In this document: positions 54,902 through 56,914 of the stretch, piece by piece
Position numbering within the stretch: position 1 is the stretch's first letter
How the letters are laid out: the number at the start of each line of letters is the position of its first letter
From: Cellulomonas cellasea
Lineage (GTDB): Bacteria; Actinomycetota; Actinomycetes; Actinomycetales; Cellulomonadaceae
Length of the DNA: 64,000 bases
NCBI RefSeq assembly: GCF_006538745.1
Contig: NZ_BJLR01000011.1
Location: 1 to 64,000 of the forward strand
Reading direction: 5' to 3'
The notes under the pieces: model-generated
What the model was told of the DNA's origin: nothing
The model's input: the letters and a program-made list of their open reading frames with translations, nothing else
The model's database searches: none
Position numbers and translations under genes: made by a program

Positions 54902-55558
54902 ATGACCCTCACGCTGACGCTCGTCCGCCACGGGCGCACCTACTTCAACGCACGCCGGATCCTGCAGGGACGCTGCGACTCGCCGCTCACGCGCGACGGC
55001 CGCGCGGGCGTCCGCACGACCGCCCGGTACCTCGCGGGCACGCCGTTCACGGCCGCGTGGTCCTCACCGTCGGGCCGGGCCGTCGCGACCGCCGTCGAGC
55101 TGCTCCGCCACCACCCCGAGGTCCGCCTGCGCACCGACCCCGGGCTGCTCGAGTACGGCTTCGGCATCTACGAGCGCAAGCCCGAGGGCGTGCTCGACGA
55201 GGTCGTCGCGTGGCCCGACCTCGTGACCGAGGTCCTGTCCGGCCGCCACCCCGGGCTGCCCGGCGGCGAGTCCGGGAGCGAGTTCATGGGCCGGACGCGC
55301 GACGTGTTCGCCCGGATCGCCGCGCAGCACGACGGCGGGCACGTGCTCGTCGTCGGCCACGGGCTCGCACTCGGCGCGTACCTCGCGACGGTCGACGACG
55401 TCGGCCTCGTGCCGCTGCCGAACGCCTCGGTCTCGACGGTCGAGGTCGAGCCCGACGGGTCGACGCGTCTGACCAGCGTCGCGGTCGACGTCGCCGGCCA
55501 GGGCCACGTCGCGGCGCGTCCGATGCGGACCCCGACACCGGTAGCTTCGATCGCCTGA
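54902..55558 (+). CDS. Histidine phosphatase (phosphoglycerate-mutase-like) family protein
   Basis: 218 aa. LTLVRHGRTYFNARRILQG carries the RHG catalytic motif (His about residue 10), followed by SSPSGRAVATAVELL (second Arg), GLLEYGFGIYERK and VLVVGHGLALGAYL (second His). Such enzymes dephosphorylate small sugar phosphates or act as PGM-like proteins; the substrate is not apparent. Cytosolic. Followed by an 18-bp tandem repeat and the SAM riboswitch. Confidence 0.88.
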   Translation: MTLTLTLVRHGRTYFNARRILQGRCDSPLTRDGRAGVRTTARYLAGTPFTAAWSSPSGRAVATAVELLRHHPEVRLRTDPGLLEYGFGIYERKPEGVLDEVVAWPDLVTEVLSGRHPGLPGGESGSEFMGRTRDVFARIAAQHDGGHVLVVGHGLALGAYLATVDDVGLVPLPNASVSTVEVEPDGSTRLTSVAVDVAGQGHVAARPMRTPTPVASIA

Positions 55559-55574
55559 CGCGGCAGGTCCGCTC

Positions 55575-55610
55575 CACGTCCCTCGTCCGCCGCACGTCCC
55601 TCGTCCGCGG
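55575..55610. repeat. 18-bp tandem duplication
   Basis: CACGTCCCTCGTCCGC begins at 55575 and again at 55593, an 18-bp period, in the gap after the histidine-phosphatase gene. Confidence 0.7.
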
Positions 55611-55699
55611 CGCGCCGCTCGCCGGTCGAGCGGTGGACGGCCGCATCTCGCAGACTGAGAGGCATTGCTCAGCATGCGGGACCGGCCCTATGCTCGGCT

Positions 55700-55793
55700 C
55701 ACCATCCAGAGCGGCCGAGAGTCCTGGCTCGTCGACGCCGCAGCAACCCCCCTCTCACGAGGGTGTGGGTGCTTCCGCCAGGTTCGATGGAGT
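55700..55793 (+). ncRNA. SAM riboswitch (S-box/SAM-I clan) upstream of metF
   Basis: The core shows CCATC (55702-55706) pairing with GATGG (55786-55790) as P1, AGAGCGGCCGAGAG after it, CCTGGCTC, GCAGCAACC (55740-55748), a GC hairpin CCCCTC...GAGGG (P3/P4 region) and GGTGCTTCCGCCAGG, matching the SAM-binding family. It precedes methionine genes metF and metE, as expected. The 3' strand of P1 runs into GGAG, the ribosome binding site of a short ORF, which points to translational control. Subtype (SAM-I versus SAM-I/IV) was not resolved. Confidence 0.88.
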
Positions 55794-55798
55794 TGACG

Positions 55799-55864
55799 AT
55801 GACGTGCACGTCCCCGTGTCCGCGACCCTCGGCGGCGCCCGCCCGGCCGACCGGCCGCTCATGA
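55799..55864 (+). CDS. Short leader ORF between SAM riboswitch and metF
   Basis: 21 codons beginning MTCTSPCPRP, from an ATG with GGAG (55789-55792) six bases upstream. Two of those bases belong to the P1 stem of the riboswitch. The stop TGA (55862-55864) overlaps the metF ATG (ATGA), and metF has no ribosome binding site of its own, so translation of metF probably depends on this ORF. Cys at positions 3 and 7; otherwise Pro/Ala/Arg-rich. Coding status is inferred from geometry, not from conservation. Confidence 0.6.
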   Translation: MTCTSPCPRPSAAPARPTGRS

Positions 55865-56901
55865 GCGCCCCCGTGACCGATGCGGTGCCCGCGCCCGCGC
55901 CGACCCGCAGCCGCGACGTGCGCGCCGCCGTCGACCGGCCGACGGTGTCGTTCGAGCTGTTCCCGCCGCGCAACCCGGACGCCGCCCCGAAGCTGTGGGC
56001 GACGATCCAGGCGCTCGGCGAGGCGCGCCCGGACTTCGTCTCGGTGACCTACGGCGCGTCGGGCAAGACGCGCGACACCACGCGCGGGCTCGTCCGCCGC
56101 CTGCTGCGCGAGACGTCGCTCAACCCGATCGCGCACCTGACCTGCGTCGGCACCTCGCGCGCCGAGGTCACCGCGGTCGTCGAGGAGTTCCTCGACGAGG
56201 GGGTGCGGTCGTTCCTCGCCCTGCGTGGCGACCCGCCCGCCGACCAGCCGGACTGGCGCCCGCACCCCGAGGGCCTCGAGACCGCGAGCGAGCTCGTCGC
56301 GCTGCTCCGCGAGATCGAGGAGCGCCGCTGCCGCGGGAGCCTCGCGCAGAAGGTCCGCGCGACCGTGCGTCCGCTGTCGATCGCCGTCGCCGCGTTCCCG
56401 CGCGGCAACGCCGGCACGGGCAGCACCCGGGCGCAGGACGTCGCGGCGCTGCTCGCCAAGCAGGAGGCCGGCGCCGACTTCGCGATCACGCAGGTCTTCT
56501 TCGACGCGGGCAGCTATCTCGAGCTCGTCGCCGAGGCGCGCGAGGCCGGCGTCACGATCCCGATCATCCCGGGCATCATCCCGACGACCGACCCGGCCCG
56601 GCTGCTTCGCGTCGAGGCGCTCACGGGCGTCACGGTCCCCCGGCCGCTGCTCGACCGCCTCGGCTCGGTCGACGACGACGCCGAGCGCCACCGTGTCGGC
56701 ATCCGGGCGAGCGTCGACCTCGTGAACGCCGTGCTCGACGGCGGCGCCCCGGGCGTCCACGTCTACACCTTCAACACCCACCATGCCGCGCTGGACCTGC
56801 TCGAGGGTGCACACCTCGGCGGCGGAGCTCCGACAGCTCCCGACCGGGCCCCCGGGCCACAGGCCGGCTCACCCAGCCCCGTCCCCGCCCCCACGAACTG
56901 A
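55861..56901 (+). CDS. metF: 5,10-methylenetetrahydrofolate reductase
   Basis: 346 aa from the ATG at 55861, which overlaps the leader ORF stop. VSFELFPPRNPD (catalytic Glu), FVSVTYGASGKTRD, LAHLTC-type stretch NPIAHLTCVGTSRAEV, FLALRGDPP and QVFFDAGSYLELV with IPIIPGIIPTT are the MTHFR barrel motifs binding FAD and folate. It makes 5-methyltetrahydrofolate for methionine synthesis. The first 30 and last 25 residues are low complexity. Directly followed by metE, 13 bp away, under the same riboswitch. Confidence 0.93.
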   Translation: MSAPVTDAVPAPAPTRSRDVRAAVDRPTVSFELFPPRNPDAAPKLWATIQALGEARPDFVSVTYGASGKTRDTTRGLVRRLLRETSLNPIAHLTCVGTSRAEVTAVVEEFLDEGVRSFLALRGDPPADQPDWRPHPEGLETASELVALLREIEERRCRGSLAQKVRATVRPLSIAVAAFPRGNAGTGSTRAQDVAALLAKQEAGADFAITQVFFDAGSYLELVAEAREAGVTIPIIPGIIPTTDPARLLRVEALTGVTVPRPLLDRLGSVDDDAERHRVGIRASVDLVNAVLDGGAPGVHVYTFNTHHAALDLLEGAHLGGGAPTAPDRAPGPQAGSPSPVPAPTN

Positions 56902-56914
56902 TCGAGGACCCACG

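What the first reader, a model, noticed from the sequence alone, without database searches (positions are those of the whole stretch)
55700..55864. SAM riboswitch whose P1 stem hides the ribosome binding site of a leader ORF coupled to metF
The riboswitch P1 3' strand (GATGG, 55786-55790) overlaps GGAG (55789-55792), which is six bases before an ATG opening a 21-codon ORF. The ORF stop overlaps the metF start (ATGA) and metF has no ribosome binding site. When SAM stabilises P1 the GGAG would be masked and metF, via coupling, switched off. A riboswitch acting on a coding leader peptide rather than on the gene itself would be unusual; the two Cys near its N-terminus add a possible second amino-acid signal.
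Basis: partly seen in the sequence, partly recalled or inferred. Interest (0 to 1): 0.75.

Follow-up and report, generated by a model that had tools for sequence, protein, structure and literature searches.

The report
SAM riboswitch relayed through leader ORF
In this actinobacterium and many relatives an RNA sensor of S-adenosylmethionine appears to hide the ribosome landing site of a tiny throw-away reading frame, whose stop overlaps the start of the methionine gene metF, so that metF would be switched through the tiny frame rather than directly.

Summary
Rfam's SAM (S-box) aptamer lies at 55699-55793 (52 bits, cut-off 44.4). Its P1 3' strand overlaps GGAG. Six bases on, an ATG opens a 21-codon ORF (55799-55864) whose TGA overlaps metF's ATG (55861). 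Relatives give strong support: among 159 distinct riboswitch-metF sequences, 95 have such a leader, and all 95 end in a TGA overlapping an in-frame metF start (ATGA, GTGA or TTGA). In 58 the same start codon opens metF directly; in 6 metF has its own SD beyond P1. None is out of frame and uncoupled. Leader length changed at least 35 times on a MetF tree. The peptide itself shows no purifying selection (27% synonymous, neutral 29%): the frame and its stop appear to be kept, not the peptide. Best reading: a SAM-I translational OFF switch acting through a nearly sequence-free relay ORF, with termination-reinitiation into metF. Close precedents exist (B12/uPPE2, Mbox uORF, SAM-II metA). The cysteine-signal idea is unproven: Cys codons are enriched but often turn over between close relatives. 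Nothing was tested in cells, and the free RNA fold does not show the SD opening.

The parts
55699..55793 (+). SAM-I (S-box) riboswitch aptamer, RF00162
   Evidence: 52.0 bits, gathering 44.4
55702..55706 (+). P1 5' strand CCATC (contiguous part)
55786..55790 (+). P1 3' strand GATGG
55789..55792 (+). Shine-Dalgarno sequence GGAG of the leader ORF, overlapping P1
   Evidence: most relatives printed have the same GATGGAG before the start codon (exceptions such as L143, L144, L147, L148, L191); GATGG was part of the search motif
55799..55864 (+). leader (relay) ORF, 21 codons, MTCTSPCPRPSAAPARPTGRS*
   Evidence: the window and its counterparts make 95 of 159 distinct sequences
55861..55864 (+). 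ATGA overlap of leader stop and metF start
   Evidence: stop-start overlap in 95 of 95 leaders
55861..56901 (+). metF homologue (methylenetetrahydrofolate reductase), 346 aa
56915..59266 (+). metE (B12-independent methionine synthase), 13 bases after the metF stop, with GAGG at 56904-56907

Best explanation
A SAM-I riboswitch whose P1 helix contains the SD of a short leader ORF controls translation of that ORF. Ribosomes that finish the leader stop at the TGA overlapping the metF start and reinitiate there (termination-reinitiation), so that when SAM stabilises P1 the leader and metF fall together (metE too, if the two are one operon). The leader is a relay: its start after the SD, its open frame and the place of its stop matter, its amino acids hardly at all. 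In other lineages the same start codon opens metF directly, and the two states have changed into one another several times. Shown: anatomy, conservation of frame and overlap, absence of peptide constraint. Inferred: SAM binding, translation of the leader, reinitiation and OFF polarity.
For: Aptamer and SD in P1. No terminator-like site at 55500-56000, as expected for translational control. 282 loci examined: 35 without a riboswitch motif and 58 with no anchored metF were set aside, and the other 189 gave 159 distinct sequences: 95 leader with overlapping TGA, 58 direct, 6 with an own SD beyond P1, 0 out of frame and uncoupled. The metF starts at the overlap are 53 ATG, 41 GTG, 1 TTG. At least 35 length changes on the MetF tree of 76 leaders, 20 lengths. 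Outside the window's family, 26 of 29 metF loci have leaders and 3 are direct. 10 of 95 have a stop in the metF frame between P1 and the metF start, so there metF cannot start next to the riboswitch SD. 72 of 95 have no GGAG/GAGG/AGGA just before the metF start. 94 of 95 have no further in-frame start with such a tetramer before the metF core. 18 pairs of related leaders: substitutions by codon position 56/42/40 and S:N 21:56 (27% synonymous against 29% neutral); metF core control in those of the pairs with equal lengths 12/7/31 and 24:8. Closest tested analogue: PPE2 expression depends on the uPPE2 SD and AUG and on a tight stop-start overlap (PMC11260477, sections read).
Against: No ribosome profiling, reporter or SAM-binding data. 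The free fold of 55699-55870 pairs three of the four SD bases with other sequence (unpaired probabilities 0, 0, 0.14, 0.99), more than with P1 imposed (0, 0.01, 1.0, 0.89), so folding does not show an open ON state; a search for a general alternative pairing between aptamer and ORF head gave nothing (mean z -0.37 and -0.30). 23 of 95 leaders do have an SD-like tetramer before metF, which would allow some independent initiation; two of these (L143, L144) lack GGAG in P1 and have GGAGG before metF, so they are doubtful relays. The sequences are related, so 95 is not 95 independent events, and the null per leader is not small (about 0.41). GATGG was part of the search motif, so P1/SD conservation is not independent evidence. 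The window's own metF frame is open upstream (GTG at 55804).
Confidence: 0.8

Rival explanations
1. metF really starts upstream in its own frame (for example GTG at 55804, eleven bases after GGAG), the riboswitch acts on metF directly, and the leader ORF is an accident of GC-rich sequence.
For: The metF frame is open upstream in the window and has a GTG at 55804. On average 81% of shuffled leader interiors stay open. 58 of 159 distinct relatives are direct.
Against: 10 of 95 leader sequences have a stop in that frame. The stretch shows no excess of third-position or synonymous change, unlike the metF core. The ATG or GTG after the SD is out of frame in all 95, always in the one phase that meets the metF start.
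Confidence: 0.07
2. The riboswitch SD is a standby site: ribosomes land there and start at the distant metF codon without translating the leader, as reported for the SAM-II metA switch of Sinorhizobium meliloti.
For: There the SD in the riboswitch is needed but translation starts 74 nt downstream, and fluorescence was still observed when AUG1 was mutated (PMC9373788). metF here likewise lacks its own SD.
Against: Sliding would not need a reading frame, yet no out-of-frame uncoupled case was found among 159 although leader length changed at least 35 times.
Confidence: 0.06
3. The leader is mainly a cysteine-sensing attenuator peptide, giving metF a second amino-acid input.
For: In-frame Cys codons 45 of 929 against 26 of 882 and 17 of 882 in the other frames, and 45 against 24.3 +/- 4.3 in shuffles, 0 of 300 as high, in 47 leader clusters. 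In eight of the 18 close pairs Cys codons are kept (for example L033/L034, L040/L044, L075/L100). Elsewhere in the order SAM riboswitches precede Cys-type leader peptides.
Against: 16 of 47 clusters have no Cys. In six of the 18 close pairs Cys and Arg exchange (L045/L048, L042/L049, L061/L090, L035/L036, L052/L053, L065/L069). No terminator-like site. No NCBIfam hit for the window's leader. No run of Cys codons near the stop.
Confidence: 0.07

Closest known systems
ppe2 B12 riboswitch with uPPE2 of Mycobacterium tuberculosis (PMC11260477; abstract and sections 20-23 read)
   Same: Riboswitch masks the SD of a short, out-of-frame uORF; the uORF stop and gene start overlap as AUGA; the gene lacks an SD; reporter work showed dependence on uORF translation, mostly by termination-reinitiation.
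   Different: Other ligand and aptamer class (B12), other target; the uORF is called partially conserved there. Here SAM-I and metF, with 95 distinct leader sequences and leader/direct interchange.
pe20 Mbox and uORF of M. tuberculosis (PMC12810186; abstract and one section read)
   Same: Translational riboswitch acting on a small ORF before the operon.
   Different: Mg2+ sensor; the controlled uORF2 is highly conserved and uORF1 poorly; no relay through an overlap was described in the parts read.
metA SAM-II riboswitch of Sinorhizobium meliloti (PMC9373788; abstract and one section read)
   Same: SAM riboswitch holds the SD, the gene starts far downstream.
   Different: Other aptamer class; AUG1 and AUG2 are in frame; AUG1 not needed.
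Actinobacterial cysteine leader peptides, NCBIfam NF042934 and PMC1262725 (passages read)
   Same: Short ORFs before amino-acid or sulfur genes of actinobacteria; some stand behind SAM riboswitches.
   Different: They have a shared motif (by eye VDLxR...CR) or Cys runs near the stop; the metF leaders tested have no NF042934 match and metF leaders show no peptide constraint.

Membership tests
SAM-I riboswitch (Rfam RF00162) | covariance-model score above gathering cut-off | tested here: met
   52.0 against 44.4 bits
SAM-I riboswitch (Rfam RF00162) | binds SAM | not testable with these tools
   needs in-line probing or similar
translational (SD-masking) riboswitch | SD of the first ORF inside a helix of the bound state | tested here: met
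   GGAG 55789-55792 overlaps the P1 3' strand; two of its four bases lie in the contiguous helix
translational (SD-masking) riboswitch | no intrinsic terminator as expression platform | tested here: met
   0 terminator-like sites in 55500-56000
translational (SD-masking) riboswitch | SD released in the ligand-free fold | tested here: inconclusive
   the free fold pairs three of four SD bases elsewhere; prediction without ligand or tertiary contacts
termination-reinitiation coupled gene pair | stop and start overlap, second gene without SD | tested here: met
   ATGA and no SD in the window; 95 of 95 leaders overlap; 72 of 95 without SD-like tetramer
termination-reinitiation coupled gene pair | second gene depends on translation of the first | not testable with these tools
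   needs reporters; shown for uPPE2-PPE2 (PMC11260477)
NF042934 putative leader peptide (cis_reg_atten) | profile match over cut-off | tested here: not met
   no family for the window's leader nor for the five other metF leaders given; of three non-metF leaders given, one was over the cut-off (28.2 against 27), one below (24.9), one without a match
amino-acid attenuator leader peptide | conserved regulatory codons and a terminator | tested here: not met
   no terminator-like site in the window; Cys codons exchange with Arg in six of 18 close pairs (kept in eight)

The most novel reading that the evidence does not exclude
SAM-I riboswitches across the order use a fixed aptamer-plus-start module followed by an almost sequence-free relay ORF that is made and unmade by frameshifts between the N-terminus of the target and a separate leader; and in lineages with in-frame Cys codons early in the leader the relay also reads cysteinyl-tRNA, so that metF answers to SAM and cysteine together.
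Probability: 0.15. Interest if true: 0.85.

Novelty: new variant of a known kind. Interest (0 to 1): 0.62.

Why it matters
A riboswitch is usually taken to act on the next annotated gene. Here a widespread set appears to act on short ORFs of 1 to 39 codons, and evolution keeps the frame and the stop-start overlap while the peptide drifts. That would make termination-reinitiation a conserved regulatory relay, gives a comparative sign of coupling that needs no experiment, and bears on target and start-site annotation of metF in many actinobacteria.

Tried and rejected
Chance: rejected as the whole account by 95 of 95 and by at least 35 length changes without a single uncoupled case, although openness alone is cheap in this composition.

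An upstream start of metF in its own frame: not favoured.

Conserved leader peptide: rejected by codon-position counts.

A general anti-aptamer pairing between the aptamer 3' half and the ORF head: duplex energies little better than shuffled (its output was cut, the means were seen). In sequences whose P3 carries GGAAG the ORF head tends to hold a complement; the window's riboswitch has no such P3 and this was left aside.

A viral copy of metF: none confirmed. A sigma-70 consensus promoter at 55500-56000: none by the scan. The hairpin just before the window's metF start is, by eye, not shared by the nearest relative L034. Searches printed a first set of relatives, replaced. Of 21 loci that marked 'noribo', the nine from L143 up were looked at again: 8 have a SAM match over the gathering score with a variant 3' motif and read as direct by eye, and L200 has none; one search used a wider motif. 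The metF loci of the family without a riboswitch motif (nine, such as L200 and L312-L314) were not analysed further.

Full report
What is there. The window holds one Rfam match over a gathering score, a SAM-I aptamer at 55699-55793 on the + strand. The 3' strand of its closing helix P1 is GATGG (55786-55790), and the SD GGAG (55789-55792) shares two bases with it. An ATG follows after six bases and opens a 21-codon ORF (55799-55864). The TGA of this ORF shares ATGA with the metF start at 55861. P1 is five contiguous pairs, a mismatch and one more pair. metF (346 aa) and metE follow one another with a 13-base gap. The same genome has a second SAM riboswitch elsewhere.

Comparative test. metF loci were collected from the window's family (221 genomes searched; 201 had a SAM match at E <= 0.001 and 205 a metF match), from named genome records and from a sample of 396 genomes of the order (90 with the pattern), with regions fetched and a further 30 family genomes. 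Shared contig lengths show that the family includes Cellulomonas, Sanguibacter and Pengzhenrongella; its name, Cellulomonadaceae, is recalled. The final script examined 282 loci, L033-L314 (L033 is the window itself). 35 had no riboswitch motif and 58 no anchored metF (mostly riboswitches of other genes). The other 189 gave 159 distinct sequences: 95 leader, 58 direct, and 6 in which, by eye, metF has its own SD beyond P1. The class 'start after the riboswitch SD out of frame and not ending at metF' was empty. Each of the 95 leaders ends in TGA overlapping an in-frame ATG (53), GTG (41) or TTG (1); 92 leaders start with ATG and 3 with GTG; they run from 1 to 39 codons, median 20.

How strong is that. 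Openness alone is weak evidence: shuffled interiors stay open in 81% of cases on average, and with a one-in-two chance for the phase the expected hit rate is about 0.41 per leader (74 leaders). Relatedness reduces the effective number. The better measure is change: on a MetF tree with 76 leaders (quick IQ-TREE, long branches flagged) the leader length changed at least 35 times, with 20 lengths. Among leaders the phase is fixed by the way the class is defined; the test is that the class of uncoupled out-of-frame starts stayed empty. The leader and direct states need at least 5 changes, 4 of them forced by starred branches; L093, direct, sits among leader species. Outside the family 26 of 29 metF loci have leaders and 3 are direct; that sample required an ATG 3-9 bases after GATGGAG. 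GATGG was part of every search motif, so conservation of P1 and SD is not counted as evidence. Two of the 95 (L143, L144) lack GGAG in P1 and have GGAGG just before metF, so they are doubtful relays.

Where metF starts. In 10 of 95 leader sequences a stop stands in the metF frame between P1 and the overlap, so metF cannot start next to the riboswitch there. In 72 of 95 there is no GGAG, GAGG or AGGA just before the overlap start; 23 do have one. In 94 of 95 there is no further in-frame start with such a tetramer before the conserved core. In the window the metF frame is open upstream with a GTG at 55804, so the window alone does not settle it.

What is selected. In 18 pairs of related leaders that share no sequence, substitutions fall 56, 42 and 40 on the three codon positions, and 21 of 77 single-change codons are synonymous (27%, neutral expectation 29%). 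The metF core, in those of the pairs with equal lengths, gives 12, 7 and 31, with 24 of 32 synonymous. The leader stretch does not behave like protein-coding sequence under selection, yet the frame is kept. That is the pattern expected of a relay: ribosomes must start after the switch, meet no early stop, and stop on the metF start.

The cysteine idea. In 47 leader clusters in-frame Cys codons are 45 of 929, against 26 of 882 and 17 of 882 in the other frames, and 45 against 24.3 +/- 4.3 in shuffles. Against it, 16 of 47 clusters have none, and among the 18 close pairs Cys and Arg exchange in six, while Cys codons are kept in eight. No terminator-like site was found in the window. The enrichment is real in these counts but unexplained. 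The clusters are not fully independent.

Folding. With P1 imposed, two of the four SD bases are paired (unpaired probabilities 0, 0.01, 1.0, 0.89). The unconstrained fold pairs three of them elsewhere (0, 0, 0.14, 0.99), so it does not show an open ON state. Such GC-rich folds without ligand and tertiary contacts are weak evidence either way.

Literature. Ten searches were allowed, nine used. By titles and the abstract openings shown, none listed a SAM-I riboswitch acting through a leader ORF on metF, within a library that lacks most subscription papers. Close precedents: uPPE2, where reporters showed that PPE2 needs the uORF SD, its AUG and a tight stop-start overlap (PMC11260477, abstract and sections 20-23); the pe20 Mbox (PMC12810186, abstract and one section); and the SAM-II metA switch with a start 74 nt downstream (PMC9373788, abstract and one section). 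The last is the model for the standby rival, which does not explain why the frame is kept. Passages only were seen of PMC1262725, PMC8079986 and PMC9971707.

Verdict. It is a new variant of a known kind: a SAM-I translational switch with a conserved, peptide-neutral relay ORF.

Noticed in passing
L251-L254, L256-L262 (order-level loci): SAM riboswitch SD followed by cysteine-type leader peptides; of three such leaders tested, one is over the NF042934 cut-off (28.2 bits, cut-off 27), one just below (24.9) and one unmatched. By eye the next genes look like sulfite reductase (L257-L259, L261, L262) and a rhodanese-type sulfurtransferase (L254, L256).
   Followed up: partly
L104-L183, those with GGAAG in P3: Riboswitches whose P3 carries GGAAGCCTCC tend to have a complement (GAGGC, GGCTTCC or GAGGCTTC) in the first 24 nt of the ORF after its start codon, leader or direct alike: 42 sequences, mean longest run 5.6 against 4.57 shuffled, 21% at p <= 0.05 singly; 62 without it 4.34 against 4.38, 2%. 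Possibly loop-to-start-site pairing.
   Followed up: partly
L215, L237 against L236 (and L216 of the same genome as L236): Within one genus (g79) a SAM riboswitch precedes a rhodanese-like gene either through a 17-codon leader with ATGA overlap (L215, L237) or as one fused frame with a similar N-terminus (L236; in L216 that frame stops after 55 codons), which looks like interchange by frameshift.
   Followed up: partly
L280: Minimal leader ATG-TGA (start-stop) overlapping a GTG metF start.
   Followed up: no
G000:C16:370512-370612 (-), L001: Second SAM riboswitch of the same genome; by eye, the start after its SD opens a small gene (DUF1737-like, recalled), followed by an ATGA overlap with a rhodanese-like gene.
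   Followed up: no
window 55689-55694: TATGCT a few bases before the aptamer, and by eye similar hexamers at the same place in relatives printed; the transcript may begin close to P1. The consensus scan found no promoter.
   Followed up: no
metF leaders of the set: Codon 7 of the leader is Cys in 14 of 47 clusters, against 4 each at codons 3, 4, 6 and 15; unexplained.
   Followed up: partly
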